Of a stretch of DNA of 64,000 nt, positions 22,961 to 62,472 are shown in pieces. Position numbers and translations under genes: made by a program. How positions within the stretch are numbered: the first letter of the stretch is position 1; every line of letters begins with the position of its first letter. Below the pieces are notes generated by a model. That model was not told the origin of the DNA and did no database searches. It saw nothing but the letters and a program-made list of their open reading frames with translations. The stretch is from Axinella damicornis (lineage: Eukaryota; Porifera; Demospongiae; Axinellida; Axinellidae). The DNA lies in assembly GCA_963931865.1 (NCBI GenBank), contig OZ007515.1, forward strand, positions 4,082,701-4,146,700, read 5' to 3'.

Positions 22961-22961
22961 G

Positions 22962-22968: not shown

Positions 22969-23058
22969 ACGAGAAACAAATGCATATTGACAGTTACAGT
23001 TTCTCGTATTACTAAGTTGTGACTTTGCGTGACACGCACCGAATACAGCTCTTGCAAG

Positions 23059-26861: not shown

Positions 26862-26893
<32 letters not shown>

Positions 26894-27587: not shown

Positions 27588-27642
<55 letters not shown>

Positions 27643-29697: not shown

Positions 29698-29735
<38 letters not shown>

Positions 29736-32494: not shown

Positions 32495-32625
32495 GGTTAG
32501 GGTTAGGGTTAGGGTTAGGGTTAGGGATAGGGATAGGGTTAGGTTTAGGGATAGGGTTAGGGTTAGGGTTGGTAGGGTTAGCGGGTAGCTGGGGGTTAGG
32601 GCTATAATAGGGTTAGGGTTATAAT
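32495..32625. repeat. Interstitial telomere-like (TTAGGG)n tract
   Basis: Runs of ttaggg with atagggt and tttaggg variants, then further dispersed ttaggg words until about 32670. TTAGGG is the ancestral metazoan telomere repeat. Genes continue on both sides, so this is interstitial. Confidence 0.9.
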
Positions 32626-32694
32626 TATTGACATTCAAAGAGTAGGATTAGGGTTAAGTTACAGTTAGGGTGAACATATTCATGTATAGAGCAT

Positions 32695-32960
32695 CATGCA
32701 CACACCCCACCCAACCCCGTCCACCCCCTCCCCCAACCCCACCCACCTCCCCCAACCCCATGCACCCCACCCACCCCCTTGCACCCATGCTCCCCAACCC
32801 CCCTCCCCCAACCCCACCCACCCCCCTCCCCCAACCCCATGCACCCCACCCCCCCCCCCCCCCCCCCAATGCTCCCCACCCCCCAATGCTCCCCACCCCC
32901 CCAATGCTCCCACCCCCCAATGCTCCCCGCCCCCCCAATGCTCCCCGCCCTCTGAGCGAA
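32695..32960. repeat. C-rich minisatellite (ccaatgctcccc / caccccacccac) with poly-C
   Basis: Tandem units of about 12-20 bp, with a 19 C run at about 32849-32867. The adjoining segment at 32975-33040 (gtgagggctcacctcacctt...) reappears at 55885-55945, again next to a C-rich minisatellite. The two arrays therefore probably belong to one composite repeat family. Confidence 0.8.
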
Positions 32961-34211: not shown

Positions 34212-36110
34212 CTGCAGCAGACTGGAAGCAGTCGCGGCAGACTGCGGTCGATCCTCCTGGTACTCATAGAAGAAAAACAGGGACAGCATCCAGATACACT
34301 CGCAACTCCTCTGAATGTGTGCCTAGCGTGCTCGCTCTACCACTGAAGGTGATTTCTGTCACAACTGTTGGGCAAAGACTGGGTACATGCTACACAAACA
34401 TGGTGCCAGGTAGGACGACTTTAAACTCCATACCCTCCTTGTGCAGAAATCCAGAGTGTACTGGCAAGAGTAGACTTCAGTTTGCTAAACAACATACTGT
34501 CGTCCCATTCTCAAGGTGCTCTTCACCTTCTTTGAGGTCTGTGGAGACCCCAGGATCTAGTATTGCAGGCAAGCTGTTGAGCCGAAGGGAAATTACATGG
34601 ACATTACTGCTGGAGTGTTGAAGATGATATGCACAGTCATGTGCCCTGTTGGTGGATCAGATCAGGGCTAACATCGTGATTCACAATATTACAAAAATGG
34701 TCTGCATCTTACTATTCTTCTTCCCTCACCACATGCACACACACATGCATCCAGACATGAAGTCCAAGAGCGTCCAGGCAGATCGAGAATGAGGCCCTCA
34801 AAGAGAATTAAGGCAGAGGAGTGCACGATTGACCTAGAGATCATCAAGCAAGGAGATCAGTGAGTCTGGAATGGATTGCACTAGCTGCTACCGATAGCGT
34901 TGTTTACACACTTGAGCAACGATGCTACTAGAGCTGTGCCAGTTGTTGCATGTACTACGGTGTCTACAGTATAACTTGAGGAGTGGCTATGTTTCAGTAC
35001 GCCAGACCAGAGCCTCCATCGTCTGTTGTTTTGCTGCTATGGCTATGGCTGTTTGAAGTTTGGTCTGGTCCATCAAACCGAGAGTAGCTATGTCCCCAGT
35101 TGTCTTCTTCTGTAGCAAGGCAAAAAAAACCCGTAGTCTCTCGAAAATACGCCAATGGGCGATGAACTTAGTGGCTGCTCAAAGAGGGGGATGGGCGTAT
35201 TTTCGAGAGACCACGGTACTGTTCAAGCCCCGTTAGGATTGCCCACCTGGTCAGACACATGCCACATGGCAGTGACTTCGAGTATGTAATAGCAAATCAC
35301 CTAGTGACCAGCTTCCGTTCTGTATTTTCAATTCTGCAATAGGCACTCTATATAGCCAAATTTTTACGTCCATGTCCATTTGTTAATCAGCCATGTTTGT
35401 TTACAGGAAGAAGTGGGTGTGGATAACAATACAAACTACAGATTTCCTTTGGTTGGTGGTGCTGGAGAATTGGCAGAGTGGCTGATGTACAGAACCTGGA
35501 AGTAGAGGAACAAATGAACGGTGATTGAGGTCTTACATTATCAGTTTACTTCGAGATGAGCCTTTAGATTTCTGACCCAGGGTAAATTGCACGAGGTAAC
35601 TTAGGTGTGCTCTGCAGATTAATGACTCCTTCACTAGTTCAAATACATCTCTTTCCCTTTCTTCCTCCGGAGACACGGCATCGAGTTGAGGATGGAGGTG
35701 GATCATGAACTGAGGGAGGAGGACGACATGGGCTGGAACGCTGTCAAACAGGTGATGGTGGAAGAGAAGGAGAGGGGGAGGGAGAGGGGAGAAGTAGAGT
35801 GGGACGTGAAATGATAGCCCGGGAGACGGGAGAGATGGTGTAGGCGGAGAGCGGGAGGTGAGAGGGGAAAGGAGGGAGGGGAAGGAGAGTTGGGGTAGGT
35901 GGTGAGGGGAAGGGGGAGAGATGGATCGGTGTAAATATGGGAGAGTGGGTATGTATATAGGCACTGAGTGTTGCGATCACCTGTGTGTGTGTGCGTGTAT
36001 ATTGACAGTGGTCACTTAGTCTCATGGGCCAGACACTTGCGGCACCCACCAAAACAAGGGAAAAAGCATCTGACCCACAGACTAAGCATGTATCACTGAA
36101 GAGAAACTAG
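34212..36110 (+). CDS. Unrecognised spliced gene (3' exons)
   Basis: Four candidate exons join with matching phases and canonical sites: 34212-34409 (gtagga donor), 34778-34859 (gtgagt donor), 35673-35751 (gtgatg donor) and 36009-36110, ending in TAG. Together they give about 153 codons. The product is basic at first, then contains RPSKRIKAEE, which reads like a nuclear-localisation signal overlapping a SUMO consensus (IKAE). An acidic stretch (VDHELREEDDMGWNAVKQ) and a Lys-rich tail follow. I recognise no domain. The 5' end is not resolved: a frame at 33559-33742 has a good acceptor and donor but its phase does not connect directly. The gene lies between the two phosphatase copies on the opposite strand. 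It could be a chance chain of open segments. Confidence 0.35.
35131..35217. mobile_element. Small MITE with CCGTRGTCTCTCGAAAATACGCC-type ends
   Basis: The left end has gtctctcgaaaatacgcc; the right end is ggcgtattttcgagagac in inverted orientation. The spacer is about 45 bp. It lies within the second-to-third exon intron of the putative gene at 34.2-36.1 kb. Confidence 0.7.
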
Positions 36111-36281
36111 ACATGAACTATGATTGGTTCTGTTACTGGTTCCACTGACCAATGTTGCACCTACATATAACTTTCCAGCTATGACTCTGTGTACAGTGGT
36201 ACTTCTATAGGCCTGTAAGCAAGTAATGTTTTGAACCAGTCGTATCCTATTGATCTGTACGTCTATATCCCTTCAGTCGAG

Positions 36282-36283
<2 letters not shown>

Positions 36284-36313
<30 letters not shown>
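36284..36313. repeat. Poly-G tract (30 G)
   Basis: Uninterrupted run of 30 G in the spacer between the unrecognised gene and phosphatase copy 2. Confidence 0.95.
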
Positions 36314-36315
<2 letters not shown>

Positions 36316-36730
36316 CAGGAACTATCATCTCTATACCAGTTCAAGTTCCCATTGCAAGAATTCTGAATGATCATTCAAGTTAGTGTGCAGCATTAGGATT
36401 TTTCACAATCATTGGTCAACCCATGCATAGCTGGCCTCATTCCCAGTTGGCCGTACCGATCTAAAATAGCCTCCACTGGGCCTGTGATAGTTGTAATGAG
36501 AGTAATGGCCTCACCTGCCCTTCAGCTTACTGTAATTATGTTGATGTATCGCAGTATGCCAGTGTGCATAATAATGCTCTTGCAGTACGTCAATTGCATA
36601 TCGATACAGTGAAACACAACATTGTTGCAGCTCTAGTTGGTAGGGAGTTAATACTTATCATAGTGATGATACACATACATACACCCATCAAAGTAGTCAC
36701 CAACATAGTAAATAAAATGCACAGCTCTGA

Positions 36731-37541
36731 TCACATTCCAAAAGGGCCGTGCTTGTGTTGTACAATCCAGATGCTGTCTTCAACTCGGAGATCATCAGCA
36801 ACGACCTGCTCCCAGGACAGGTGGGTCCCATTCACTGCCTTCAGCCTCCCATATCCATGTCGGTTCAGCCACCATGACCTGTAGGCCGACCAGGGACCTA
36901 GTGGAGAGGGCATGGGTTGCAGGTATCCCATTGTTGTTACTGCATAAGGTGTATACTGTGATGTATAAGGCATTTGCATGTGACGTTCGTGGAGGTACAT
37001 GTGGTTGAATGAGGACTTAGTACGCAAGTTGATGCACATGCAAAATGCACTCTAAATCACTACCCAGTATCTATGCTGGCTGAAAAATCCAGACCCCCCC
37101 CATACAAGCTTCTATATACAACAAGGATGGCCAATGGCCATCATGTGCAGAATTGTTGCTGACTTGCACAGAATAAATATAAATGTTTAATACTGTTGAG
37201 AATTTAGAATGTTCTAGCCTCTAGCTCCTGGGTACATGTATGATGTCATAATGTACAGCGCACACTTAAGACATCTCAACAGGTGTTATGCAGTACCACT
37301 TACCCCTCGGCCCTAGCATGGGGTTAATGCACTCTCCCAGACTCTCATTGCAGCCGGCAGTGCCAGAGATGAGGTGCACTGGAGCCTTGGGGTCAGTGTA
37401 GTTGTTGGCAGTCACATGATCATCATATACTGGCCATAGACGCTCATATGAGTGCTCGTGCGCCTCCAGAATCACATCCACACCATACTTGTAAAACAGC
37501 CCCTCCAGACTGCATGTACATGTACAGGAGCACAACAGACC

Positions 37542-37638
<97 letters not shown>

Positions 37639-40600
37639 TGTGATGTGGTATGTGTGCATGATGTGATGTGGTGTGTGTGTGTGTGGTCGATGTGATGTGG
37701 TATGTGTGTGTGTGTGTGGTCGATGTGTGTGTGATGTGATGTGGTATGTGTGTGATGTGATGTATGTGTGTGATGTGATGTGGTATGTGTGTGATGTGGT
37801 GTGTGTGTGTGATGTGGTATGTGTGAATTGTTAAGCACAACAATGCACCTACCCTGCTCTGACTTTAGACTTAGATGTGGTGCAATCGTCTCCATCAATG
37901 TTGGAGCAATACATGGGTCTGTGGCCATAGGCGATGATCCACGGCCTGATGCTCCGGTTCTCAGGGGCTGCGGCGTAGTGGAGGTCTTGCTCCAGCCATG
38001 CATGCTGCTCTTCCACTCCCCAGCCATCAAAGTAGACCTCTGTAGAGTAGCTGCGAGAGAGGCACACACACACACACCTTAGCCTCGTTCCCAGGCCTAC
38101 CCTGTTTTTTCTGTTCTTCGGTTTCTGTTGACAATAATACATGGATGCGGAAGGGCGGCAAAAAACGCCTTCTACATCGTGCGACAGACGTTAGTATATG
38201 GAAATATGACAAGAAAATTTACGGAGATTTTCAACAGAATACGGAAACTCAGCGAATCCCAGTAGGACAAATTATTTACTCCTCAATGGGGGTGTAGCCT
38301 TATTTAATGGATAGCCCAATGTTCAGAGGTTCAGGACTACATAAAGGTTGGAAGGAGAGATGCTACATGGCCTCATTCCCAGGCTCTCTCCGGCCGCCTA
38401 AAGAAAAACTGGTTTTGAGGAGAGTGCCAGGGACTGAGGCCAGACGCTACATGGTGTCCTGACCTGATGAAATGCACTGTAGCAATGTCCCAGGAGTACC
38501 AGTGAGGGCTTGAGGTGGACGGCATTGAGAAACGGTTCAGGAAGTTAAAACCACTCTCTGTGAATCAGAAGAGGAATGTTCTGAATCTGAAGTAATTTTT
38601 TCCAATCGCGAAGGGGTCATACAACTAAGTGTACTTCTTCCAAATCAGTAGCTACATCAGACGTTAGGGCAGTAAGATGTGGGACCACTGTTTGGAACAC
38701 CTAACCATGGTTTCCTGGACAGGTCATGTATGGTAGGTAAGCTGCCAGGTCCTGGATTCGGTTCATGAACTCATCACCGTTCTGCAAGTCAGAACATAAT
38801 ATTCGTTCTCAATTCTAGTCATGTACTGACTATATCTTGCATCTACTGCACTACACTGTACAGGTGTTCTACACAAGAGAAGAAACTTTCTTTACATGGG
38901 CATCGGAGCAGATCTGGTCCCAGGCCCTCCGATCCACGGTCAGTGGTCAATGCTACTCAGGCTTGAGAGGAGTTGATGCAAAAATCTGATGAAGGGCATA
39001 GGAAACACTTTTGCTATGGTCAGGCCAAATAACAGAATGCTCTATCAAAGTTTGTGCTATGCACCTCACACAGAAAATTTTTCAGACTTGTATGTGGTTG
39101 TGTGAAGCACAGGTCTGGGTGCATGCTCTCCCTCTCCCCATCCACCCCCCTCCCCCACATCCCATCCACTCACCCTCTCCCCATCCACCCCCCTCCCCCT
39201 CTCCCCATCCACCCCCCTCCCCCTCTCCCCATCCATCCCCTCCCCCTCTCCCCATCCACCCCACTCCCCACTCCCCTCTCCCATCCACCCCCCTTCCGCT
39301 CTCCCCATCCACCCCACTCCCCTTCCGCTCTCCCCATCCATCCCACTCCCCTCTCCCATCCACCCCCTTCCACTCTCCCCATCCACCCCACTCCCCTCTC
39401 CCATCCACCCCCCTTCTGCTCTCCCCATCCACCCCCCTTCCGCTCTCCCCATCCACCCCCTCCCCCTCATCCCCCAGGAATTTAAGAGCTCTGAGATCGC
39501 ATTTGCCGACTTTTCAAGCCAAGTAAGTATCACCATACAGTCTACCAAAGTAGCCAATAACATAATGACATCAAACTTACCACTCCTCCATCACTATCAA
39601 GGTCATAGGCAAAGTCTCCCACATGGAGTATAGCGGTATAGCTCTCTGACGCAACCTCCGAGATGAGGGCAGGGAGGCTCTGTGCACCTCCATGGCGACC
39701 CATGTCTCCATACACTAAGAACTCTGGAGACCAGTCCTGTTTAAGGTTCAAGTGGGTGAAATAGAGGAGGGAGGACGGAGGGAGGGGAGGGAGAGGGGAG
39801 GGAGAGGGGACAGAGAGAGGACGGAGGGAGGGGAGGGAGAGAGGGAGGGAGAGAGGACAGAGAGAGGGGAGGGAGAGAGGGCGGAGGTGGAGGAGGGCCG
39901 GGAGCGAGGACAGAGGGAGGAGAGAGGACAGAGGGAGGAGAGAGGACGGAGGGAGGGAGAGAGGACAGAGAGAGGGAGAGGGAGAAAGCAAGGGAGTGAG
40001 TAATTGGGAAGGGGATAGAGGGAGGGGGTGAATGTTGCCAATCAATGGTGACTCCAGCAAAAACTATAACACATTGCACATAATAGTGATGCAAACAGTA
40101 CGTCTCACCTGCCCCTCTTGCATTGCTGTGAAGCGGAACAGTTCACTAGTATTGGAGCCACTCTGCACTGCATACCAGTACACGGCACCTGGAGCAAGAT
40201 CCTGGACAAATATATATAATAATAATAATCCTAGACTATCGAACAGGAATCAGTCCATTATTATAGGTAACGGACATATGCACATTCAGAACTGGCAATG
40301 GCCCTAGTTTACTCTAACCACTGCCCCACTTCCTTAGTGTTCGACAGTCAATCACCCAGAAAGAAATTCAAAATGATTATTGGTCTGCAGGAAGTAGGGC
40401 GATGGGTTAGGGACAGTGCTGAATGGGCACCCACGTCGAAAGAATTTTCATCATCATTCACAAAAGAACAGGACAAGGTGTGTATGATTTGTCTAATACC
40501 TGCAGAACAACTTTGTGCACGTAGTGGAGACCTTTGGGGTTCCCTTTAGTGAACTCGTGACACTCCCCGTTTGCCTTCATCACAAGGTCATAGGGAGAGG

Positions 40601-40763
40601 GTCCGTAGAGCACTGCTGAAGAGGAGCTCTCTGATGTGGACCACATGACTACCATCTGCAAGGGGGAGTAGCCGTATGCCAGGTGGATCTGCTCCGGCTG
40701 GGATTGCCCCAGCGGAGAGAACAGGAGCGAGAAGAGCAGAACCAGGGGAAACATGGTAAACAT
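36731..40763 (-). CDS. Purple acid phosphatase (ACP7-like), copy 2
   Basis: Eight exons: 40763-40500, 40201-40109, 39736-39581, 38781-38706, 38557-38464, 38050-37853, 37509-37304, 36897-36731, giving 417 residues. A second in-frame ATG at 40754 would give 414. Signal peptide MFPLVLLFSLLFSPLGQS, then PEQIHLAYG as in copy 1. All metal-ligand motifs are retained (GDMG, GDFAYDLD, GNHE, YGHRP, AHEHSYERLWP). The clearest difference is in exon 5, where three codons (Ser-His-Tyr in copy 1) are missing in frame. Exon boundaries and even the intronic microsatellites are shared with copy 1, so the pair is a recent tandem duplication or has been homogenised by gene conversion. It is divergent from BOP1, with 76 bp between start codons. 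Confidence 0.93.
37543..37830. repeat. Long (GT)n array with gatgtg variants
   Basis: About 45 perfect GT repeats followed by tgatgtg-rich variants, in phosphatase copy 2 intron 6 next to the exon 7 acceptor. His/Thr-rich frames across it are artefacts. Confidence 0.95.
38368..38442. mobile_element. Foldback MITE with 9-bp TSD in phosphatase copy 2, intron 5
   Basis: Begins tggcctcattcccaggctct and ends agagtgccagggactgaggcca. Flanked by GATGCTACA and GACGCTACA (one mismatch in nine). Copy 1 lacks it at the equivalent place, so it was gained after the duplication, or lost from copy 1. Confidence 0.8.
39118..39475. repeat. Minisatellite, unit ~24 bp, CCATCCACCCC-rich
   Basis: Array of ctctccccatccaccccc units with ccttccg and ctcccct variants, in phosphatase copy 2 intron 3. 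Pro-rich and Gly/Trp-rich frames here are artefacts. Confidence 0.9.
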
Positions 40764-40839
40764 GGTACTTCTTGCGCAAGGGGAGGGGCTCGTCTGCGCA
40801 TGCGTACAGATGCAACCACGTGGTCTTCCGTATGCAGAA
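40764..40839. promoter_or_regulatory. Compact divergent promoter, phosphatase copy 2 / BOP1
   Basis: Only 76 bp separate the two start codons. TGCGCATGCGTA at 40795-40806 matches the NRF-1 palindrome with one deviation; NRF-1 sites are typical of bidirectional housekeeping promoters. No TATA box is seen. Transcription starts cannot be placed from sequence alone, and either gene may have an unseen 5' non-coding exon. Confidence 0.55.
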
Positions 40840-43800
40840 ATGTCAAAGAGGAGCGTTTCAAGCAGGGAAATTGCTGGCCCTTCAAGAGCTAAAACTTTGG
40901 AAGACTTCGCCATAGATGTAAGTATATGTACGAACACAAAGCACCTGCTGATTATGGAGTTAAGGGGCTCATTGGCGGTGTGCGTTAATTAGATGGTGAT
41001 GTCTGCCACCAATTCCTGCAGCCTTCGGTGTCCATTGAAGATGCAGAGTCTGATAGCGAGTCAGACGGGAGCTACTATCCTGGGTTGGACAGTGAACCAG
41101 ACACAGAGGAGGAAGAGGTAATAAAGTGTGGTGGATATTGATTGTTTATACCCAGACCCTATAAGGTAACGGAGGGGGTTTCCAGACAGTCTTTTAATTC
41201 CGGACACGCAATTCATGCCCCTCGCATTCACTCCGTTAGCAGTTCTTCCGAATTATGGTAAGTGCGCATGCATACCCTACCTTCGAACTTTCCAACGCTG
41301 TGCAGTTGTTAGCAAAAAATGCTCCTAGAGAGCGAAAGCTGGGGCTGTGTCCGGAAACCCCTTGCTGTCCGGAAACCCCCTCCGTTACCTTAGCTTCCCT
41401 CTGTGTGGAATGGGTCCAGTTTGGCCATGTGAGACATGCTGTACCAGTGGAGGGAGCGGGACAAGCAGAAAGGGTCTGGTGAATAACTCCACCCTAGAAC
41501 GGATCCACGGCTGCATTCAATCGTACCATCGATCAATAATGCCATATGTTGGCCAGATTCTACTAATGGGAAGGAAGGGTTTTTGTCACGATGTCATGAC
41601 GTCATCATTGAATATATGGTTGAAAATCGAACATTTGAGCAGTTTCTGACTAATTGTTCTGTAAGCAAAGTTTGTGATATTGAAATGCTGTGGATCCGTG
41701 CCAGCTACTATTCACCAAACTCTTCCCTCTCCCTCTCCGCTAGAAAGGTCTGGGAACCAAACTAGTTCCCTGTCCCTTCTGTTGGCTTCCTGTCTGGTTC
41801 AGGATACCCTCCCCCTCCTTCTTACTCTGAGCTGATCTCCCTTGTGCTTCTTGTAGACATCCTCGGAGGGAGCAGGGGAGCTGGGATCTGGTGCAGAGGA
41901 GAGCAATGAAGCAGTATTATCATCATCACTGGAGAGTGATCCAGAGGATGACGCCCAGGAAGGAGAGGGGGGAAGGGTGGAGGAGGAGCAGATGGTGGAG
42001 GCTGGAAGAGCATGGAGGGAAGCGTGGAGGGAAGCCGAAGAGACTGATACCTCAGATGAAGAGGTTTGAACTTTATGGTAGTATCACCTCGGATCTTTTT
42101 CCGGTCAACTAATCCATTCTGATGTGTAATGTTGTGTAGAAGTTTGGGGTATGTATGACAATGACACAAGTGTCATCTTCGATCCCAACTGCAGGAGATT
42201 CGGAACACTGTGGGTAACATTCCTCTTGAGTGGTACGATGACTACCCCCACATTGGGTATGATTTGGACGGGAGGAGAGTGTACAAGCCCATGAAGGGAG
42301 ATGAGGTATGTACAAGTGTAGTGTGTCTGTGGGTGGGTGTATGGGGATGTGTGTGGGGAAGCAACGCACTAATCACTGCGGTGCACGTGCCGTTAGTATT
42401 GATGGGGGAGATTTCAATAAATTTACCCATCACCTCATGAATTCACTTAAATTCCCTCTACCCCCCTCCATCCCTCCCGCCCTCTCCCTCCCTTTGTCCC
42501 TCCCCCTCCCTCCCGCCCTCTATCCACATCTCCATCCATCCCTCTCTCCCTCACTTGGTCCCTCCCCCTCCCCCCATCCATCCCTCCCTCCCGCCCTCTA
42601 TCCATGTGCACGAATAGCTAGATGAGTTTCTTGCCAAGATGGAGGACCCAAGCTACTGGCACACCGTACATGACAAGCTCACGGGGAAGGACGTGGTTCT
42701 CAGTGACCAGCAGCTGGACATGATCCAGAGGATTCAGAAAACAGAGTACCCCGAGACAAGCTACAACCCTTATGAGGTGGGTCTGTGGGTTCCGTTTTTG
42801 TACAGCGATCGTTACGGTGTGGGCATAATTCACACAATGGTGTGATTGTTTGGCTACACTAGTGTCTTTTGACAGTTTCAAGCATAGTAAAGACTTTGAA
42901 TGCTTATGGCGGAGGCAGCCAGTGTCCAATGCTGTTCTGCCTGGGCTATATATGTTTAAGCACCCACAGCCCTACGTGGATCACTTACATGTACCTCCCC
43001 TTGTCCGTATCCATAGCCGATCACTTACCTCCCCTCTTCCATGCCCTCAGCCCTATGTGGATCACTTCACGCGTGACAAGATGCTACATCCACTCTCCAA
43101 TGTCCCCAAACCCAAGAGCAGCTTCATCCCATCCAAGTGGGAGCGTCGCAAGATTGTGAAACTTGTGCACGCCATCAAGATGGGCTGGATTAAGCCAAGG
43201 ACACGCCCAGAGAAACCAAAGTTCTACATTCTGTGGAGGGACAATGAACAGGTGAATGTGTAGTATCACGCATGGTGCACTACACCATTAATCTCCTCCG
43301 TCCTGGCCTTCCTCCCCCCCTTCTTCCTTCCATGGTTCCACCCTCCCTCCTTTCCGCCCTCCCTACTCTTTCCTGTCCCTCCCCTTACTCCCTCAATCCT
43401 TCTTCCTTGCAGGCTGATCGCGCCAAACATCATATGCACATTCCTGCCCCTAAGATGAAGCTACCGGGTCATGAGGAATCCTACAATCCTCCTCCGGAAT
43501 ACCTCCCAACCCAGGAGGAGGTGAGCAAGCATCACCTCACCCTTGATTTGAGTACTGTGTACGTACAATGTCATTATGTTCCCAATTCCATTCCAGGCTA
43601 AGGAATGGCATGAAACAGAGCCAGAAGACCGACCCAAGAACTTCCTACCTCACAGGTCAACGAAGCACTAGTGCAGGCGTGATAATCTGTTGTGCATTCA
43701 CTTCCTTCTCCTCATTGATTTCCTCTTCCACCCCCTCCCCCCTCCCTCCCCTCCTCCTCCTCCCCCTCCTCCTCCTCCACCTCCCTACCACTCACTTCCC

Positions 43801-52613: not shown

Positions 52614-53823
52614 TCACGTTCTTGAGCAGGCACCAGAGCAATGTGTATGACTCTCTCTTTGACTGAGTAAAAAATCAACATCATCATCTACGCCAACATA
52701 GAATGATTGTCCGTGTCTTTGGTCACTGCCTTCTGAGTTTGTCCTATAGTGCACGTACTTTGCAATTGTCTCAAACGCAGCTTCAATCTCACACCGCTCC
52801 GGATCCTTGGCGGAAAGTTTGAAGTGGTGCTTGATGCCATGCGCATCTGCAAAGACATCAGGGTAACAGGGACCCATGCTCTTGTGCTCCGTATCAATGA
52901 GGTCATACTTGTTACCAACCAATACATGAACTGCATTTGGGGCAAATTTCTTCGCATCTTCCATCCATGTGGCTAAGTTATGAATTGATTTGTATTCTGT
53001 GGTGTCGTACACGAGCACTATTGCATGTGTGTAAGTGTAGTAGTTGTTGGTGATTGTTCTGTAGCGTTCGACTCCGGCAGTGTCCCAGATATCCAGCTGC
53101 ATAGACACAGGCAAGGGGGGGGAGGGGGGAACCCATGTAATTGGTACCATTTTCAGTTCCTGTGATGGAAATCACTTATCACCAATGCAACAATTGGGGG
53201 CTTCAATGACAACAGGGATGGAGAACACGCGTGGACTTGCCTATTCAGTGGCTACAGTTATATACTGGACGGTTTCATGTCACTGCATTGTTGTGGACTA
53301 GCTAGGGAACGCTCAAGACGGAGTGTGCAGCATGTAACTATATCGGCTTATAGGCTCTACATGTGTTGTACCTAGGCCTGCTAGCCGGCTATATAGCCAG
53401 AGTTTGGGTGCATGTATTTTTAAACTGCTCCATGTCCTGCATGTAGCTAAGTACACTAACTCGGGCTCGCCCCTGTATTCCAGGATGTGAAGTAGGCCTA
53501 TGGCAGGCAAATTGAGACTGAAACTTTTAATTATGGTCTCGCGGTCTAGTCTCGCGTGGCTAGCATGCTTGCTATTGATGCGGCTCGAGCGAGATATATA
53601 ATTTTATTGCAAATTATATCTCACCTACCAACAGTTTTTCTCCGTTGCTTAACGTGTAGGACTTGGTGCACGTATCCGTACAGATCCCATCCGTGCTGCG
53701 CTCGTGGAACGGCTCACCCCTGAGCCGTTTGAACAGAGATGTTTTCCCAACACCGTAGTCACCCAGCAGGATCACCTTGTATCTCCTCCGCTTTGGATAC
53801 CTTGTTTGCAGCCAGGTAGCCAT
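52614..53823 (-). CDS. Rab-like small GTPase A
   Basis: Two exons, 53823-53629 and 53096-52614 (phase 0), giving 225 residues. G1 is GDYGVGKTS, G3 is DTAGVERY, G4 is GNKYD and G5 is LSAK. The residue equivalent to the catalytic Gln (Ras Q61, Rab Q67) is Val, which in well-studied GTPases slows hydrolysis. The sequence after G3 (YRTITNNYYTYTHAIVLVYD) is Rab-like. The C-terminus ends CSGACSRT: no di-cysteine, but a Cys at -4 that could act as an atypical CaaX box. Gene orientation is tail-to-tail with BOP1 (145 bp between stop codons). The intron sits exactly before strand beta-3, as in GTPases B and C. Likely a vesicle-traffic or signalling regulator; specific role unknown. Confidence 0.9.
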
Positions 53824-54190
53824 GATGTGTCAATGTTAATTTTATGTGTAATTGCAACTTTCTTGCAACTTTTGTGCGCGCATTTAAACCCGCCCTAGCC
53901 CCTCCCAGATCTCCTACTTCCTGCCGGACCAATAACTGTGCAATTATTTGACCCGGGGTCAAAATTTGTTATAGGGGGCAAAATTGCACTCCAAGATTAA
54001 TTTTTGGTCCCCAATGCAGTTCCAAGTGCGGACAATAAACGTTGAAGCACTAATCTCTGAGTGGATGGAGTTATCCTCTTTCCCATGCAGGCCGTCTACA
54101 CCTCTAGATTTTGATCGCTTGCAATTGCAGTAGGGTTTGCAAGCGATCAAAAACTAGTGTAGAAGGCTGGGAACGAGGCTAATCTAAGCC

Positions 54191-54230
54191 TAGCCTCGTT
54201 CCCAGGCCGCGTGGGTGGAGAACGAGGCTA
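54191..54230. mobile_element. 40-bp mini foldback of the TAGCCT family
   Basis: tagcctcgttcccaggcc, a short spacer, then gagaacgaggcta, flanked by ATCTAAGCC on both sides. Because the upstream neighbour (54090-54181, itself a TAGCCT element) also ends gaacgaggcta before ATCTAAGCC, a small tandem duplication could produce the same pattern. Confidence 0.6.
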
Positions 54231-54600
54231 ATCTAAGCCCTAAGATAGATGTAATCAATCATAGTGAGGGATGCAGCAGATGCACTGCAACATATAATAA
54301 TATAATACATATAAGGTAGCTGCCCCAGCAGATAGACATGTAACCATTTCAATTAACCAACAAGCTATCAACAGGATGTGATTGTACTACATGTACAGTA
54401 CAGATTTAACATGATCATACATTGTACTAATTATCCATGCATGGTAGGCAAAGTTTCAGCGTTGAAGTTAACGTTAGTGAGCTAATTAGTTAACGTTGTT
54501 AGTTAAGTTGACGTTAGTGAGCCAATTATTATGAGACACTGTGGGTATTATGAGACACCCCAGTTTTGCTATAATATTATGTTTAAGTAATATTTATATA

Positions 54601-54940
54601 CCACTTTGCCGTGCATTACGGGTTTTAGTGCACGAGGGCAATCTAGTTAACGGTCGAGGGCGAGATAATGCACGAGCCGAAGGCGAGTGCATTATCCGCC
54701 CGAGACCGTTAACTAGATTGCCCGAGTGCACTAAAGCCCGTAATGCACGGCAAAGTGGTATCTAAACTACTTAGTGCAACTCACCGACCCGAGACAGCCT
54801 TTGATCTTTGAAAAGTGTGCATTATCTAGATAATGCACACTAAAGTGTGCAATAAGCGATTTAATGCTCCGTCATGTGATCGATTCTGAGGCGTCTGATT
54901 CGTTGAGGGTCACGTGAGTAGCACTAATACCTAATCATCA
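54601..54940. mobile_element. Hairpin repeat of the TAATGCAC family
   Basis: 54601-54756 is a near-perfect hairpin with arms of about 70 bp: ccactttgccgtgcattacg returns inverted as cgtaatgcacggcaaagtgg. The 180 bp to its right, including the palindrome gtgcattatctagataatgc, is shared with 48720-48900. Confidence 0.8.
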
Positions 54941-55559
54941 TTTGGCTAGGTAAGCCACACCCTACCAGCATAGAAGATTATACTAGCTTGCAGTTGGTAT
55001 TCTGGCAGTGCATTTTTTTATTAGAAACTACCCATAAATTTCATCAAAATTTACCACTATTCAAATGAGATTTGACAATGTTCAGGCAAAGTGATGATGT
55101 CTATAAATTCTACGAAACCCATAATACCGTCTCATAATACCTACACATATAATTATACCTTATACTTTTGCATGGGTACGTATTTACCCTAATCTATTTC
55201 TGCATGTAAATGAGTCAACCTTTGTGCTACCGCTTTTGCATAATCATGTTCTCCAAAAACTGGCTGACCGAGTGTACGATTGGTATTATTCTCCAAGAAT
55301 GGCATGGTTCTGAGTGGCAATGCTTCAGTCATTGCTCTGCCAAATTTACCACAGTGATGGATATTGTGGCCGAAGCTACAAAATCCAAAACTAGCCAAAA
55401 CTTTACTTCATGCAGTTTACTATACAGTACGAACCTAAGAACCTTTAGAAATATGTTTGACTATAATTATACTTCAGCAATCCCTTCTTGGTACATTGTA
55501 TATTACATCATCTGATACGGTACCTTCAAAGAGAGTCCTATTTGTCTCCAATTCACCAT

Positions 55560-55945
55560 GCACCAGCATATAGCCAGCTGCTCCACCAACCCAGGTTGCC
55601 CCACCTACCCAGGCTGATCCACCCAATGCACCCATCCACCATGCCATGGCTGCCCCATCTACACATGCTACCCCACCCCACCCAGGCTGCTCCACCCACC
55701 CACCCACCCAGGCTGCTCCACCCACCCACCCACCCAGGCTGCTCCACCCACCCACCCAGGCTGCTCCACCCACCCACCCAGGCTGCTCCACCCACCAACC
55801 CAGGCTGCTCCACCCACCAACACAGACTACCCCACCCACCCACATATACCTGAACTTCAGGTTAGGCCGTTAGGGTGGTGAGGGCTCACCTCACCTTCAT
55901 CTCACCTGAGCTAAAACTTAGCCTGAATGGCTTGGGTATACTAAT
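55560..55945. repeat. Minisatellite (~20-24 bp, CCACCCAGGCTGCTC) plus composite-repeat tail
   Basis: About ten units of ccacccacccaggctgctc, followed by gtgagggctcacctcacctt and a tail also present at 32975-33040. Confidence 0.85.
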
Positions 55946-56024
55946 TTAGTCAAGGTGCAGCCGGATACCGACAACACTGCCTGAGGTACAGAGCCTGGGT
56001 ACGATCGGCTATGCCTGAGGGTGT

Positions 56025-56552
56025 TTAACCCATTAACCGATAAATTATTTTTCTCCGGAGGTCTCTAGTAGCGTATGGATGCATTAAACCTACCATATCT
56101 CCAGTTCTCCCAGCTTATCAGCCCCCAAACTCCACACACCTGACCTTGCAGCAATCCTCTACACTTTCGTGACTTTAACCACACCCACCCATCAAGGGAC
56201 ATCCAATAGTCACGGCTCTCGGCCGACCATCGCTCGACTAGACTGAGAAAAATGCTTCACTGCTAGAAAAGGAGGGCCTACAAGGCGAGAGGACTGTTTT
56301 CTCAGCCCATTTGTGCAAAGGAGGACAGAAGTGGCCCGCTGCGCTCCAACCAAGGGCTCTTCAAGGCTAAGCCCAAACACGGCCATACTGTCTGCACCCT
56401 TCGGGTGCACCCACCCACCTCCCCTTGCCCCGCCCTCTCTGCTGGCGCAGAGCCTATCTCCCAAGCTGCAAGGACATTGCCGGAAGTCTGACATCACTGA
56501 TGAAATCTCATGCCGTCTAGTCTGTAGACGGCTTCATCGGTTAAAGTGTTAA
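56025..56552 (+). mobile_element. TTAA-MITE copy C with clean termini
   Basis: Starts TTAACCCATTAACCGATAA and ends with the reverse complement of TTAACACTTTAACCGATGA; TTAA is present at both ends. The internal block (aggagggcctacaaggcgag, gcacccttcgggtgcaccc, ctcccaagctgcaaggacat) aligns with copies A and B. TTAA target sites and TTAAC termini suggest a piggyBac-type transposase; this is inference because no transposase is encoded. Confidence 0.82.
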
Positions 56553-56613
56553 GATCAAATGGGAGGGCTCTATCCTCATACTCCATAGCAGTGATAAACA
56601 CCCTGTAGAAGCC

Positions 56614-56720
56614 TAGCCTCGTTCCCAGGCCTTCTCACCCCAGCGTTTGTCGCTTGCAGTACTAACACGGGGGACTGCAAGTGACAAACGCTGGGGTGAG
56701 AAGGCCTGGGAACGAGGCTA
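56614..56720. mobile_element. Foldback MITE with 9-bp TSD
   Basis: tagcctcgttcccaggcctt through ttgtcgcttgcagtactaac, with the full reverse complement ending gggaacgaggcta. Flanks GTAGAAGCC and GTGGAAGCC (one mismatch). Confidence 0.85.
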
Positions 56721-57093
56721 GTGGAAGCCTGAGCTTCTGCCTCATTAATATTGGTCTAAGTAAACCAACTGAAGGTGGCAGAGTGGATCTGGTTCCCAGA
56801 CCGTGACATGCAGTACAGAACCAGACATCTGACACAACACTGTACATCTGACACAACACTCCACACATTCTACATGTACATCGGGTCATATTTATCCCAC
56901 ACAATGACAAACAAAAATATTATTCTGCTTGTACACAGTTCTTTGAGTAGTACAGTCTGCACATCATAACACCATTAACCAGTAGTAGTCATCAAAACAC
57001 AAGGAAAAAAAAAGAAATCTGCTACATGTACATGTACTGCAAACATAGAGATAGTGATAGTGCGGAGGGTTTTGTATGGCTGTGCATATTTTC

Positions 57094-59293
57094 TCAACAT
57101 TTACACCCACTTTGCTGCTGCTGGGGTTGGTCTCCTAATTCTTCTCCTCCAATGACATCATCCGTTCCAAATGTTGGTTTCTTTTCCCCCGCAGCCCCTG
57201 CCCCACGTGAAGAGGGAGGTGACTTGTGTAGTGCCCTTGCAAGCTGCTCAAATGCCTCCGCAATACCAGAATTTGTTTTGCAGGAGATTAGAAACTGGAG
57301 TTCAAATTCGTGTGCGGTAGCGAAAGATTTTGCTGTTGTTGGGTCAATTTCAGGCTCAAGGTCTACTTTATTTCCAACAAGCATCCGAATTGCATTAGGT
57401 GCAAAGTTCTGAGTGTCTTTTATCCACTGAGCAAGGTAGTGCAACGACGCGGCTTCTGATACGCTGTACACAAAGACTGCAGCATGTGCGTTACGGTAGT
57501 AGTTTCTTGTTAGCGTTCTAAATCTCTCCACACCAGCAGTGTCCCAGATACTCAACTATGTGCGTGTGCATATGCATGAGGTGTGTACATATGCAGGAGG
57601 TGTGCGTGTGCATATGCATGAGGTGTGTGCATATGCACAAGTGTGTGTGCATATGCAGGAGGTGTGCGTGTATATGCATGAGGTGTGTGCATATGCACAA
57701 GTGTGTGTGCATATGCAGGAGGTGTGCGTGTATATGCATGAGGTGTGTGCATATGCACGAGTGTGTGTGCATATGCATGAGTTGTTTCGGCCACAGACCC
57801 AAACCAACCCCAGCGCGGATTGCTTCTAGTATCACACGCGTGATACTGGAAGCGATCTGCGCTGGGGTTGGTTTGGGTCTGGGACCGAGACTAATGCAGT
57901 CATGTGTGTGCACACGCATAATGTGTGTGTAAATGCAGTCATGTGTGTGCAACGAGGGCGTAAGAGTGCATGTCATCTGTCTGGAGTTGTCTCATAGTGA
58001 AAGCTGATTGTGTCCACTGTTCAAACAAACCCTACATTCATCTTCACAGCACAAAGATCACAAAGGTATAGGAAGACTTAACTACAATAGTAACACACCA
58101 TAGTATAGCAATGGGACACAATGCAGGCCTCTTCCCAGGCTCCTCCCCAGCTGTTTGTCACATACTGTACACTATGTGACAAAAAGCTGGGAAGGAGTTT
58201 GGGAGCAAGGATAGGCTTGAGGGTGAGGGTGTTTACATAACATTAAAGGGGAATTTCTAAAGTTCACAGGTGTGACTTGGTACAGATCAGGCATACAAAT
58301 GTAAGAGCAATGCTGAGACTAGTTTAGCAACTGGGAAAAGCATGACACTATGACCGTAACAGGTTAGCTGTTATGTATCTGTGACTGTAATTTCTGTACC
58401 GGTACAGGCCATTTCTATGATGTCAAACATAAACCCCAAGAAAAAACTTTCAAAAGGAAGCCGTGGAACTGATGCTAGCTACTATGTTCTCAGAACATCA
58501 ATACATCCAGCTACTATAGTGTGGGCCTAGTAGAGTGGCTGCATTGACGGCACGTGACTGAGTACATCCGCAAGCCAAAAGAACTTGGAGCTCAATCTAA
58601 TCGACACATAAGTTCCAAGCTGCTTGCATTTCTAAGATCACTGTAGAAATTACTACTTTCTTGCCCTGCAGTCCTAAGGAATAGGCCTGTAACGGAGGGC
58701 ATTTCATTTTTTTATATGGCTGGTGACATCAAACGCAGCTGCTCTATAGGCTGGATTGTATCCCAGTAAGGTAAGGCGGGGCTATTCCGACGGCGGGGTA
58801 ATTCCGATAGTTGGCTGTCTTTGTTACCGGACAATTCTTCTGTGGTACTGCAGGGTAGGTTGAGTATCAGCCTACCCTGCGGTACCACAGAAGAATCTAA
58901 CTTTGTCTGGTAGCAAAGGCAGCCAACTATCGGAATTACCCCGCCGTCGGAATAGCCCCGCCTTACCTTACTTGACGATTAGGGGAAAGCTGGTGGCATC
59001 CCTGCACTTACACAACAGCATATTAAACTAAACCCAAACCTTAAGATTAACCAACCTAAACTGCAGATCTCCCACACTGGCTATTAAACACTACCAACCC
59101 ACTAGCTGTTACCTACCATAACGGTTTCCCCGTCCACCTTCACGACTTTGGTGCAGCTGTCTATTCCCGTTGTCGCCGTCTGGTACTCGTCAAACGTATT
59201 GTCTTTCAGCCTGCGGAACAGGGAGGTCTTCCCCACTCCTAGTTCCCCCAGCAGAACCACTTTGTACGTTGGACCTCTGCTCGGCGCAGCCAT
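57094..59293 (-). CDS. Rab-like small GTPase B
   Basis: Two exons, 59293-59117 and 57555-57094 (phase 0), giving 212 residues. Motifs: G1 GELGVGKTS, G3 DTAGVERF with Val in place of the catalytic Gln, G4 GNKVD, G5 ISCK (Cys for Ala). Following G3, RTLTRNYYRNAHAAVFVYS is Rab-like. The C-terminal tail is Gly/Pro-rich, then Gln-rich, and ends CKC, a standard Rab geranylgeranylation motif, so the protein should be membrane-anchored. The single intron (about 1.56 kb) lies at the same place as in GTPases A and C. Its acceptor is embedded in a CA-rich minisatellite (57560-57785). The gene is divergent from GTPase C, with 285 bp between start codons, so they may share a promoter. Confidence 0.92.
57560..57785. 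repeat. Minisatellite (catatgcatgaggtgtg units) at the GTPase B acceptor
   Basis: Units of about 20-62 bp built from gcatatgcaggaggtgtgcg and gcatatgcacaagtgtgtgt. The first copy overlaps the last bases of the intron before exon 2. Confidence 0.9.
57788..57893. mobile_element. Foldback MITE, TAGTCT-like tips, in GTPase B intron
   Basis: cagacccaaaccaacccc through gcttctagtatcacacg is inverted on the right, ending gggtctgggaccgagacta. Stem of about 45 bp. Confidence 0.75.
58766..58971. mobile_element. Foldback element with GTAAGGTAAGGCGGGG ends
   Basis: Arms of about 90 bp are nearly perfectly inverted (gtaaggtaaggcggggctat, tccgacggcggggtaattcc, gatagttggctg, attcttctgtggtac). Loop about 25 bp. 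A separate family from the TAGCCT elements. Lies in the GTPase B intron. Confidence 0.85.
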
Positions 59294-59578
59294 GTTTTAA
59301 TTCGCGAAGTGATTTGTCGCGTGATCAAAGGGGGAATTATTTTTGCTAATGAGTTCAAAGGTCACCGTGCCCCGCTAGCGCTACGCGCGTGTTGGAGAAA
59401 GCGGACACTAGCAGCTAACTTCCTGCTAGCGATTTCCGAACACATCATTCTGCAACAAAGCATGAAAAATATGTGTGTTGTGTGCAGTGTGTCTGTGTTC
59501 GCCACATTGAGTTCTTTTTAATTTTATGCGGCGACTTGCGCAGCCACGCCCAAAATTTTTCCGCCCGTACTAAACAAG

Positions 59579-61050
59579 ATGGCGCTTCACCCAGAGTACA
59601 AAATCATTCTCCTGGGCGATCCGCGGGTGGGAAAGACGACCTTTTTCCTCAGAATAAAGGAAGGGGATTTCGTGGACACGGAACTGCGACCCACAGCCAG
59701 TCTCGGAGTGGAACATCTGGAATTTCAACACAAAATCGGGGGCGTGGACGTGAAGGTTAGTCATCCATGCATGATACCACACTTATTGGTGCATAGTAAC
59801 GGCCCAAACCACTAAGGATCAGTGGTACTTGCAAATTTTTCGAACGACACCAAACTCGTCATCATTCGATTGAGTTGCAGTATAGTCTTGGAAACTGACC
59901 CTTTACGATCGCACGGGGAGGAAGGGTCTGGGCACGCGCTTACATTTGAGTTGTCCCCAGGACAGAATGTTGACCTGACAATCAGAAGCAGTGATTGCAA
60001 ATGACATCATGGAAATGATTTTTCTCCAGGCTTCAGTGTCGCCAGTGACTAGACACTGCAAATTCAATGTGCGATGCTGTGTTACCCACGAGTGTTTGAC
60101 AAAGGTTATGGGGAGCAACGTGCAGATCAACTGTGGTACCCGTGGTCTCGCAGTTGATCGCAAGTTACCCATGCATTCTGTCAGAATGTAGGGACGTGCC
60201 CAGACCCTTCCTCCTCCCACGTGTGAAGGGTCTGGTTCCGAGACTAGTAGTAGTAGTCTCACAGATCGGACCCTGTTCCACAGAGAGGGAAGGGGTGCGG
60301 TCTCATGCAAGTATTTGTCCTGCCATGACTCCAGATTGTGTCCCAATTGTATGGACTGACAAGTGCATGCTTTGCCAACCAAAACGTTTCCAGAAACCAG
60401 ATATCTGCTTGCACCAATACTAGCCATAACCTTGCAACCGTGCCCACTATTGGGATGAAGAAATGCGTGTTCCATGCTAGTCTCGTTCCCAGACCTTTCA
60501 TCCAGTGTGTATATTGCTTCCAGTATCCGCGCTGGGTCTGGAACTGAACCCCCTCCCACTTTGTAGAATTGTGTGTTGCTGCGAGACTAGAACAGTGGTT
60601 CATCAGTATATTGAACGATTGTTACAGATTAGCCAATATTTAGCTTTGTTATTTTACATGAGTACAGTCTGATTCATTACATGGCTTGTGTTCAGGAAAT
60701 CTGTCTTGCTGGAGTTATGCTGTTTTCATTAATGAGCAAAGATTTCCTAGTACTATGCTTTAGATCAGTGGACCGTAAGCACAGTGACACAACTTTCACA
60801 AGTGTAGTACAGCAGCGGACAAAGTTGAGATCTTGTCTGCTTCGTAAATCCTTGCAAAACAGTAGTCAACTTTCTTGTCAGCAGCAGACCAAGTTGAGGT
60901 TTGCGTGTTCTTCCTTATACAGAGTACAGTAATCAATAAGCAGTAACATTGGCCACTCAAGATGGCCACAGCTTTTCGAGGATGATGAGGATTACAGTAC
61001 AATGAGTGTTGACTATTCCCTTTAGAGGGCCTGAAACTAAAACTTCTTGC

Positions 61051-61108
<58 letters not shown>

Positions 61109-61554
61109 ACACACACACACAGGCTTATTTACATGACACAGGAGGAGGAGAACGTTTCCGAACGCTGACATCCAATTTCTACCGCAATGCAGACGCAGCC
61201 ATTCTGATGTACAGTGTGGAAGACCAGTACACATTTGAGAACCTTCAGGAGTGGATAGAAAATGCACAAGACAGCGTAGACCTGGACAGTTTTGTCTGGG
61301 CCCTTGTAGGCAACAAATGCGACTTACCGCTTGAAATTGAGCACGACAGTATCAAGGCACGGTGTGAGCAGCTTGGAACGACTCTGAGTTTCTTTGCATC
61401 TGCAAAAACTGGTGAAAATGTTGTCAATGCTATGGAGAAGATAGTCGCAGAAGTGCACAAGAAGAGAGCCGGAAAGTTCGAAAAGACTCCTGGCCACGGA
61501 GTGGTGAAGGTACAAAGCACGAACCCTAATAAAAGTAAGTCCAAGTGTTGCTGA
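59579..61554 (+). CDS. Rab-like small GTPase C
   Basis: Two exons, 59579-59755 and 61123-61554 (phase 0), giving 202 residues. G1 is GDPRVGKTT, with Arg where Ras has Gly13. G3 is HDTGGGERF instead of WDTAGQERF, so both the usual Trp and the catalytic Gln are lost. G4 GNKCD and G5 ASAK are standard. The C-terminus SKSKCC is a classical Rab di-cysteine prenylation site. Altered G1 and G3 together predict poor GTP hydrolysis or altered nucleotide handling, but a working fold is indicated by the intact remaining motifs. The intron contains transposon fragments and ends with 43 C, then CA repeats, directly before the AG. First-exon sequence is closest to GTPase D (PEYKIILLG, VGKTTFF). Confidence 0.9.
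61052..61121 (+). repeat. Poly-C (43) plus (CA)n forming the GTPase C acceptor region
   Basis: Forty-three consecutive C (61052-61094) are followed by about thirteen CA repeats ending in the AG of the exon 2 acceptor. The normal mixed pyrimidine tract is completely replaced. Confidence 0.95.
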
Positions 61555-62216
61555 TGAGAAGAAACAAACTATGTTCAGTTGGTTATGTAGAAATGTGTGG
61601 TTATTATATTTTTGTCGGTGATGGGAAGGAGGGTGTTTTTTTGTTTTGTGCAGCAAAGTTTGATGTGTATGTATGTGTGGAGGTACATAAAATAACACCA
61701 CATTAGTAGTAGTATGTTGCCTCTTTCCCTGTTTTATGTTCTTCGGTTTGTGTTGACTGCGCTTCCGCTCCCATGAGTTTAATATTTCAGCACAAGCCAA
61801 AGACCATAAAATCAGGGTAGGCCTATGGACGAGGATAGGTAGCTAGTATGTACTCTAGCCTCACCTTAGCCTTGTTCCCAAACGGCCTGGGAACAATCAA
61901 GGCTATAATACTCCACCTGGGTTTCTGCTATAAGCTCGTGTTCACACAAATGTGGCATCTCTGAGCTGCCGATGTCATGCCGTCACCAGTAATTCTCTGT
62001 GGAATAATAGACGAACCAAATCCCCCACGTACATGACGTACGTGTACATGTACATAAAAATTTAATTATGTTGTTTGTGATGACGTCATGCGGAAGTCGG
62101 AGCGCCCGTCATGTCATTTCCGCTCTGGGCAACTCCCCCTTTCCGGATTGCATGCAGCCCCAGTACGTGGGTGTGGCTGCGTATTAAAGAGTAAGCTAGG
62201 ACTGGAGGGAGTAAAC

Positions 62217-62390
62217 ATGGCGTTTCTCCGGCCTCTGCCCGAGTACAAGATCATCCTCTTGGGCGAGCAGGGGGTAGGCAAGACGACCTTCTTTGCGCGT
62301 GTCAGGGACGACGAGTTCACCTCCTCCACGCTGACTACGGCTGTCGACTCGCTAACACACACAATGCGGATTGGAAACACTGAAGTCAAG
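62217..62390 (+). CDS. Rab-like small GTPase D, first exon only
   Basis: The first 58 codons end at a gtacgc donor in the same relative position as in A, B and C. The product begins MAFLRPLPEYKIILLG, with G1 GEQGVGKTT followed by FFARVRDDEF and a switch-I-like TTAVDSLT. I find no second exon with a G3 motif before 64000, so the rest probably lies beyond the window; a degenerate exon or a first-exon duplicate cannot be excluded. An in-frame ATG 43 codons upstream exists, but the sequence between is not GTPase-like. Without exon 2 the state of the catalytic Gln is unknown. Confidence 0.75.
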
Positions 62391-62403: not shown

Positions 62404-62472
62404 TAGTCTATCGAGCTAGACCAATTCTCTCGCTTTCCGGAAGAGAGAGAATTGGTCTAGCTCGATAGACTA
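62404..62472. mobile_element. 69-bp foldback with perfect 9-bp TSD beside the GTPase D donor
   Basis: tagtctatcgagctagacc, aattctctc and their reverse complement around cgctttccgga. GCTTAGGAT flanks both sides (62395-62403 and 62473-62481). The insertion is 13 bp downstream of the exon 1 donor and shares only the TAGTCT...AGACTA tips with the larger family. Confidence 0.85.

What the first reader, a model, noticed from the sequence alone, without database searches (positions are those of the whole stretch)
52614..62390. Cluster of four Rab-like GTPases that have lost the catalytic glutamine
Seen: four paralogues within 10 kb share one phase-0 intron directly before strand beta-3. Where exon 2 is visible, G3 reads DTAGVER (A, B) or DTGGGER (C) instead of DTAGQER. 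Known: this Gln (Ras Q61, Rab Q67) positions the water for GTP hydrolysis; natural substitutions occur in atypical GTPases such as Rnd proteins and Rab24. Inference: a lineage-specific expansion of constitutively GTP-bound or GAP-insensitive Rabs, possibly a defence or membrane-remodelling set.
Basis: partly seen in the sequence, partly recalled or inferred. Interest (0 to 1): 0.85.

Follow-up and report, generated by a model that had tools for sequence, protein, structure and literature searches.

The report
Ancient animal Rabs without catalytic glutamine
Four neighbouring genes in what is very probably a sponge chromosome encode Rab-type membrane-traffic switches that lack the glutamine normally linked to switching off, and they belong to an old Rab subfamily, found in many animal groups, in which that glutamine seems to have been lost once.

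Summary
Genes A-D are two-exon Rab-like GTPases with a phase-0 intron just before beta-3, and none has the G3 glutamine: A and B have Val, C Gly; D's second exon, starting 404 bases past the window, has Gly. The cluster continues to at least eight genes in 38 kb, none with Gln, plus three relatives elsewhere on the chromosome. The interpretation needs correcting. The trait is not lineage-specific: relatives of B with the same DTAGVER occur in another sponge, cnidarians, molluscs, a brachiopod, hemichordates and amphioxus. In a 76-row tree all 50 family rows, none with Gln, form one side of a well-supported branch, also with the Gln column removed. The intron is not diagnostic: a Gln-bearing Rab of the same genome shares it. 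The subfamily keeps the GTP-binding motifs and mostly the C-terminal cysteines, but has largely lost the switch-I Phe of the Rab effector triad. 'Constitutively GTP-bound' is possible but does not follow: TBC GAPs supply a glutamine in trans, and engineered Rab1/Rab35 Gln mutants hardly change basal hydrolysis. Best reading: an old Gln-less Rab subfamily, possibly 'RabX6' (untested), expanded in sponges. A defence role has no support here.

The parts
53629..53823 (-). Gene A exon 1 (G1 GDYGVGKT; start ATG; donor GTAGGT)
52614..53096 (-). Gene A exon 2 (G3 DTAGVER; NKYD; SAK; ends ...CSGACSRT, no clear prenylation motif)
59117..59293 (-). Gene B exon 1 (G1 GELGVGKT; switch I ATTGIDSC)
57094..57555 (-). 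Gene B exon 2 (G3 DTAGVER; NKVD; C-terminal CKC)
   Evidence: B is 73% identical over full length to Suberites domuncula Rab-like3
59579..59755 (+). Gene C exon 1 (G1 GDPRVGKT, Arg at the Ras G13 place)
61123..61554 (+). Gene C exon 2 (G3 DTGGGER; NKCD; C-terminal KCC)
62217..62390 (+). Gene D exon 1 (G1 GEQGVGKT); exon 2 (G3 DTAGGER, NKCD, ...NCCLRQ) lies beyond the window at C11:4147104-4147556
57556..59116 (-). Gene B intron, phase 0, before beta-3; holds a 60-bp tandem array (57564-57785)
53097..53628 (-). Gene A intron, phase 0, same site
59756..61122 (+). Gene C intron, phase 0, same site

Best explanation
A-D are sponge members of one old animal Rab subfamily, Rab1-like by nearest match, in which the switch-II glutamine was lost once, early in animal evolution. 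The place is Val in most members read, Gly in the C/D branch, and Met, Leu or Ile in further copies of this genome. How it most likely works (inferred): the proteins bind GTP and, where they carry C-terminal cysteines, sit on membranes. They hydrolyse slowly, and the off-step is not set by their own glutamine: either a TBC-type GAP supplies Arg and Gln in trans, or activity is set mainly by expression, membrane delivery and turnover. Because the switch-I Phe of the Rab effector triad is mostly gone too, they should recruit a different effector set from Rab1/Rab35, and they probably need a GEF that does not use the Rab's glutamine (TRAPP-like rather than DENN-like). Shown here: gene structure, Gln loss, motif retention, common ancestry in the rows tested, presence in many phyla, local expansion. 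Inferred: nucleotide state, GAP/GEF dependence, effectors. Confidence about 0.9 for the identity and single origin of the loss, 0.5 for the mechanism as a whole.
For: Gln at G3; of 120 listed relatives of B, 67 have a readable G3: Val 64, Ala 2, Glu 1, Gln 0 (the other 53); of 68 newly listed relatives, Val 53 (17 of them near-identical Pocillopora-type rows), another residue 9, Gln 5, unreadable 1; the five Gln rows all fall in the eight-row Rab1/Rab35 set of the tree; of the first 75 listed relatives of D, 70 readable: Gly 63, Ser 5, Ala 1, Glu 1; Gln rows begin with the 76th. Tree of 76 rows: 50 family rows on one side of a branch, 99/98; with the Gln column removed 99/98, 99% of 200 bootstraps; 100/98 with 13 long or odd rows left out; 100/97 with two more own Rabs added. 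Motifs in 38 V-type rows: P-loop Lys, Asp, Thr and Gly of G3, Lys and Asp of NKxD in 38 of 38; Mg-binding Thr 30, Ser 3; Val at the Gln place 31, Gln 0; effector-triad Phe 3 of 38 against 23 of 23 reference rows; Cys in the last four residues in 35 of 37 (leaving out B', whose end I had cut). Mechanism: passages of PMC3919270.
Against: No biochemistry, expression or RNA data for these genes. I chose the tree rows from capped hit lists, so a Gln-bearing member could have been missed. Rooting inside the family is open, and an all-sponge clade is neither shown nor rejected (p = 0.345). A and E-J are long branches. Gene A lacks a clear prenylation motif. In one search the Gln mutations strongly reduced TBC stimulation for Rab1 and Rab35, which speaks against easy GAP rescue. 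Val is not universal in the family (Glu, Ala, Thr, Ser, Leu, Ile also seen).
Confidence: 0.6

Rival explanations
1. GTPase-deficient, effectively always GTP-bound Rabs that work like Rnd or RhoH: no switching, activity set by amount and location.
For: Gln is absent in all 38 V-type rows examined, and the residue at the Ras G12 place (Ser in 17 of 23 reference rows) is Ala, Leu or Val in 30 of 38; defective Rho relatives lack the standard residues at places 12, 59 and 61 (passages of PMC8072805).
Against: Ras A59 equivalent kept in 36 of 38 rows; the reference Rabs do not have Gly at place 12 either; Gln-to-Ala in Rab1/Rab35 barely changed basal hydrolysis.
Confidence: 0.3
2. Lineage-specific sponge expansion that lost the Gln recently and independently.
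For: At least eight copies in 38 kb plus three more on the same chromosome; varied residues (V, G, M, L, I).
Against: Relatives of B with Val in many other animal phyla, joined with it in one clade; A-D alone as a clade rejected; Gly-type relatives in other assemblies.
Confidence: 0.04
3. Decaying copies: part of the cluster are pseudogenes or pseudo-GTPases that no longer bind GTP.
For: E, F, H have NDKG, NDTG, NATG in place of NKxD.
Against: A-D and G keep NKxD, open frames and splice sites; B is 80 and 77% identical to its two closest relatives P0001 and P0002 by the measure. Even E, F, H have open frames and splice sites.
Confidence: 0.06

Closest known systems
Suberites domuncula Rab-like3 (A1XKT6)
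   Same: Full-length relative of B, 73% identity, same DTAGVER and CxC end
   Different: Seen only as a database entry; no functional data seen. I take it to come from Cetkovic 2007 (small GTPases of this sponge), seen only as a reference and a sentence in another paper
RabX6 (Klopper et al. 2012, PMC3425129)
   Same: Described as a Rab1-group Rab that arose in metazoans and was lost in vertebrates (passages); B's best PDB sequence match is Rab1A
   Different: No RabX6 sequence could be compared here; whether RabX6 lacks the Gln is unknown to me
Rab25
   Same: Natural loss of the Gln: DTAGLER, residues 6-180 of my recalled sequence match PDB 2oil
   Different: Groups with Rab11A, not with this family; keeps the triad Phe
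Rab24 (and Rab20, recalled)
   Different: Groups with Rab5A in the tree, so a separate loss
Rnd1-3, RhoH
   Same: Small GTPases lacking the Gln and called GTPase-defective (passages)
   Different: Rho family; Rnd proteins are changed at places 12 and 59 too

Membership tests
Rab/Ras-type small GTPase | G domain with P-loop, DxxG, NKxD and Rab fold | tested here: met
   Pfam Ras for A-D; B model pLDDT 83.9, best PDB matches Rab43 and Rab1b. Not met for NKxD in the further genes E, F, H
Rab/Ras-type small GTPase | Catalytic Gln in G3 (usual, not universal) | tested here: not met
   A V, B V, C G, D G
Rab | Effector triad Phe-Trp-Tyr | tested here: not met
   Phe 3 of 38, Trp 36 of 38, Tyr 33 of 38 plus Phe 5, in V-type rows; at the Phe place A has Thr, B Ser (from its ATTGIDSC), C His, D Ser
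Rab | C-terminal prenylation cysteines | tested here: met
   B, C, D and 35 of 37 V-type rows (B counted among them; B' left out); not clear in A and B'
The animal DTAGVER subfamily | Falls with it in a tree made without the Gln column | tested here: met
   99/98, 99% of 200 bootstraps
RabX6 | Orthology to the named RabX6 genes | not testable with these tools
GTPase-deficient class (Rnd-like) | No measurable hydrolysis | not testable with these tools
   Needs purified protein

The most novel reading that the evidence does not exclude
A whole Rab subfamily, as old as the split of sponges, cnidarians and bilaterians, gave up the catalytic glutamine (absent in all 50 family rows of the tree) and, nearly everywhere, the switch-I Phe of the effector triad (3 of 38 rows keep it). 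It would be a standing class of Rabs that work with an outside-supplied or absent hydrolysis step and a different effector code, kept in sponges as a linked multi-gene cluster and with no vertebrate member among the hits listed.
Probability: 0.45. Interest if true: 0.7.

Novelty: new variant of a known kind. Interest (0 to 1): 0.5.

Why it matters
Single Gln-less Rabs (Rab24, Rab25) are known, but a whole subfamily kept that way across many animal phyla would be a natural experiment on what the Rab glutamine is for: hydrolysis, GAP docking or GEF activation. It also warns that some invertebrate proteins now labelled Rab-1-like, Rab-35-like, Rab-13, Rab-14-like or Rab-18 in databases form a separate group with altered active-site residues.

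Tried and rejected
Independent recent losses in A-D: rejected. Intron as proof of common origin: rejected; other Rabs share it. Long-branch artefact: a tree without 13 long or odd rows keeps the clade, though A itself stays long. Other Gln-less Rabs of the genome (L004 Asn, L006 Ala, L038 Met, L077 Ser) as members: they fall outside (L077 is a 54-residue piece). Defence role: not pursued; the fibrinogen-like and ankyrin ORFs at 21-26 kb are only neighbours.

Literature: 'DTAGVER'/'Rab35-like' gave 0 papers in the held library. Nine other searches showed, by title and start of abstract, no paper on this subfamily. I looked into seven papers, passages only: PMC3425129, PMC3919270, PMC3499445, PMC12847187, PMC8072805, PMC7818423, PMC7600811; PMC3499445 and PMC7818423 gave nothing used here.

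Rows left out before counting; 53 of 120 without a readable G3, of which 43 are open frames that begin (as M or V) at the residue in the Gln place, 9 have the G3 box replaced (see noticed) and 1 begins later; all 120 rows read Gly 63, Gln 33 (34 with one that my pattern misread), Ser 5, Ala 2, Glu 1, 15 not read; I count the first 75 as relatives of D because Gln rows of other families begin at row 76, so that cut was made after seeing the letters; one later row (P0220, Ephydatia, Ala) also looks like the family; 1 of 68 unreadable. L016 and L021 were not counted (no G3 seen), and the C10 gene (L057) was not placed. The 36 V-type, 3 G-type and 9 Gln-bearing protein rows of the tree are my selection from the hits. 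E, F, H and B' were cut short at the C-terminus in the tree rows.
Full report
WHERE IT IS. The window is C11:4082701-4146700 of an unnamed 226-Mb genome. The best named relative of gene B is Rab-like3 of the demosponge Suberites domuncula, 73% identical over the full length, so the source is very probably a demosponge (inference).

OBSERVATION. A, B, C and D are two-exon genes with GT...AG introns in phase 0 directly before beta-3. The codons for Val differ between A (GTC) and B (GTG), so Val has been kept through a silent difference.

THE CLUSTER IS BIGGER. Searching the same genome and reading the neighbourhood gave four more two-exon genes: E (DTSGMEE), F (DTGGLET), H (DTGGMER) and G (DTGGLER). 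That makes eight genes at C11:4135.3-4173.5 kb. Three relatives lie elsewhere on C11: B' (DTAGVES, 5.147-5.150 Mb), I (DTAGMER, 1.53 Mb) and J (DTAGIER, 1.48 Mb). None of the eleven has Gln. E, F and H have also lost NKxD (NDKG, NDTG, NATG), so they may not bind guanine nucleotide in the usual way. For comparison, 17 of 20 other small-GTPase G3 stretches fetched from this genome have Gln, read by eye. These searches score only the best candidates, so the number of copies is a lower bound.

THE INTRON. It is at the same site in all eleven genes, but also in the Gln-bearing Rab L020 (Rab43-like by sequence, recalled) and in L038; L032, also with Gln, has the same acceptor. Relatives in other assemblies show a short intron at the same site read through in frame (P0003, P0005, P0006) or a continuous spliced reading (P0002; P0123 and P0126). 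That supports the modelled exon join for B-, D- and C-type genes; that the continuous contigs are transcripts is inferred. I have no such support for gene A.

THE FAMILY. Relatives of B carry Val at the Gln place in 64 of 67 readable cases of 120 listed, Gln in none. A profile search with 15 members, which scored only the 7994 candidates sharing most words, listed 68 further proteins: 53 Val, 9 another residue, 5 Gln, 1 unreadable; 17 of the Val rows are near-identical Pocillopora-type copies. All five Gln rows lie in the eight-row Rab1/Rab35 set of the tree. Named members with Val come from Nematostella, Actinia, Montipora, Pocillopora, Haliotis, Ostrea, Aplysia, Liolophura, Lingula, Saccoglossus, Ptychodera, Branchiostoma, Macrostomum, Owenia and Amphiura. 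Exceptions among named members: Tubulanus Glu, Magallana Ala, a spider (Trichonephila) Thr, another Amphiura protein Ser, Exaiptasia Leu, Biomphalaria Ile. I met no vertebrate member, but only the best 120 were shown each time. Of the first 75 relatives of D, 63 of 70 readable have Gly. Nearly all carry no name; the named rows nearest to them are from the sponge Ephydatia (P0220, Ala; P0125, Ser, whose label I recall as Ephydatia).

THE TREE. With 76 rows the 50 family rows (11 own, 36 V-type, 3 G-type) are one side of a branch with support 99/98. With the Gln column taken out it is again 99/98 and present in 99% of 200 bootstrap trees. Leaving out 13 long or odd rows gives 100/98, with A in a seven-row set with B, B' and their nearest relatives at 96/96. 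Adding L038 and L077 gives 100/97. A-D alone as a clade is rejected, p = 0.0004; this mostly restates that the nearest relatives of B and of C and D lie outside the four. The 19 rows that I take for sponge, held as one clade, are not rejected, p = 0.345, so the order of events inside the family is open. Rab24, Rab25, L004, L006 and L038 lie outside the family: Gln was lost elsewhere too, separately.

LINKAGE. Of 55 B-type hits on contigs over 4 kb (rows named as other animals left out) and 43 D-relatives on contigs over 4 kb (first 75 rows), 15 contig lengths are exactly shared, against about 0.02 expected if lengths were unrelated and log-uniform. I read this as B-type and C/D-type genes lying on the same contig in other, probably sponge, assemblies. 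It rests on equal lengths, not on reading the contigs.

CHEMISTRY. In 38 V-type rows (36 plus B and B') the P-loop Lys, the Asp, Thr and Gly of G3, and the Lys and Asp of NKxD are kept in all; the Mg-binding Thr is Thr in 30 and Ser in 3. Two features change together: Gln to Val (31 of 38, Gln in none), and the effector-triad Phe, present in 3 of 38 against 23 of 23 reference rows. The place matching Ras G12, Ser in 17 of 23 reference rows, is Ala, Leu or Val in 30 of 38. The model of B is an ordinary G domain, mean pLDDT 83.9; its nearest solved structures are Rab43 and Rab1b.

HOW IT PROBABLY WORKS. In Rabs the switch-II Gln plays no direct part in hydrolysis in TBC-GAP complexes; the GAP brings Arg and Gln. 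Gln-to-Ala in Rab35 and Rab1 changed basal hydrolysis less than about 1.5-fold, reduced TBC stimulation strongly, and for Rab35 greatly reduced exchange by the DENN GEF, while TRAPP tolerated it in Rab1. In Rab5 it cut basal hydrolysis more than fivefold and left GAP action alone (passages of PMC3919270). So Gln loss does not by itself mean always-on. I think slow own hydrolysis with an external or absent off-step, TRAPP-like rather than DENN-like activation, and a non-standard effector set is most likely, about 0.5 as a whole. The Rnd-like always-GTP reading is the main rival at about 0.3.

KNOWN OR NEW. Gln-less small GTPases are known. RabX6 is described as a metazoan, Rab1-group Rab lost in vertebrates (passages of PMC3425129) and may be this family; I could not compare sequences. 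I saw no paper on a Gln-less Rab subfamily spread over animals in the searches named in Tried and rejected, which cover only the held open-access library. Hence a new variant of a known kind.

Noticed in passing
C11:4166-4171 kb (L011, L012), genes E, F, H: Three neighbouring Rab-like genes have lost NKxD (NDKG, NDTG, NATG) and have long, altered switch-I regions: candidate Rab pseudo-GTPases with open frames and splice sites.
   Followed up: partly
proteins P0009, P0016, P0017, P0019, P0023, P0024, P0035, P0040, P0046: Relatives of B read without an intron in other assemblies, in which the G3 box is replaced (for example WDGSKYDR); they may be retrocopies.
   Followed up: no
C10:12376333-12376731 (L057): Rab-like exon with VDTASRER in place of DTAGQER and the same acceptor site; not placed in the tree.
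   Followed up: no
C2:2291428 (L038), C3:5918758 (L004), C7:268119 (L006): Further Rabs of this genome without Gln (Met, Asn, Ala) that fall outside the family.
   Followed up: yes
62404-62472: Near-perfect hairpin in D's intron, 32-nt arms 97% complementary, 5-nt loop; possibly a small mobile element.
   Followed up: no
57564-57785: 60-bp tandem array (3.7 copies) in B's intron next to the exon 2 acceptor.
   Followed up: no
61052-61121: 43 C followed by 14 CA units right up to C's exon 2 acceptor site.
   Followed up: no
21208-24075: Two neighbouring fibrinogen C-terminal domain ORFs (Pfam E 2.3e-60 and 1.6e-63).
   Followed up: partly
24600-25799: Ankyrin-repeat ORF.
   Followed up: no
26415-40988: Purple acid phosphatase N-terminal domain at 40461-40988 (-), and two mutually similar stretches (26418-26924 and 37269-38078, -) that may be further phosphatase exons, suggesting a tandem pair; Pfam called neither of these two.
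   Followed up: no
C11:5146900 (L015), gene B': The CxC end of B is replaced by a longer tail with a possible splice donor; similar tails end P0021, P0025 and P0060, so a third exon may exist.
   Followed up: no
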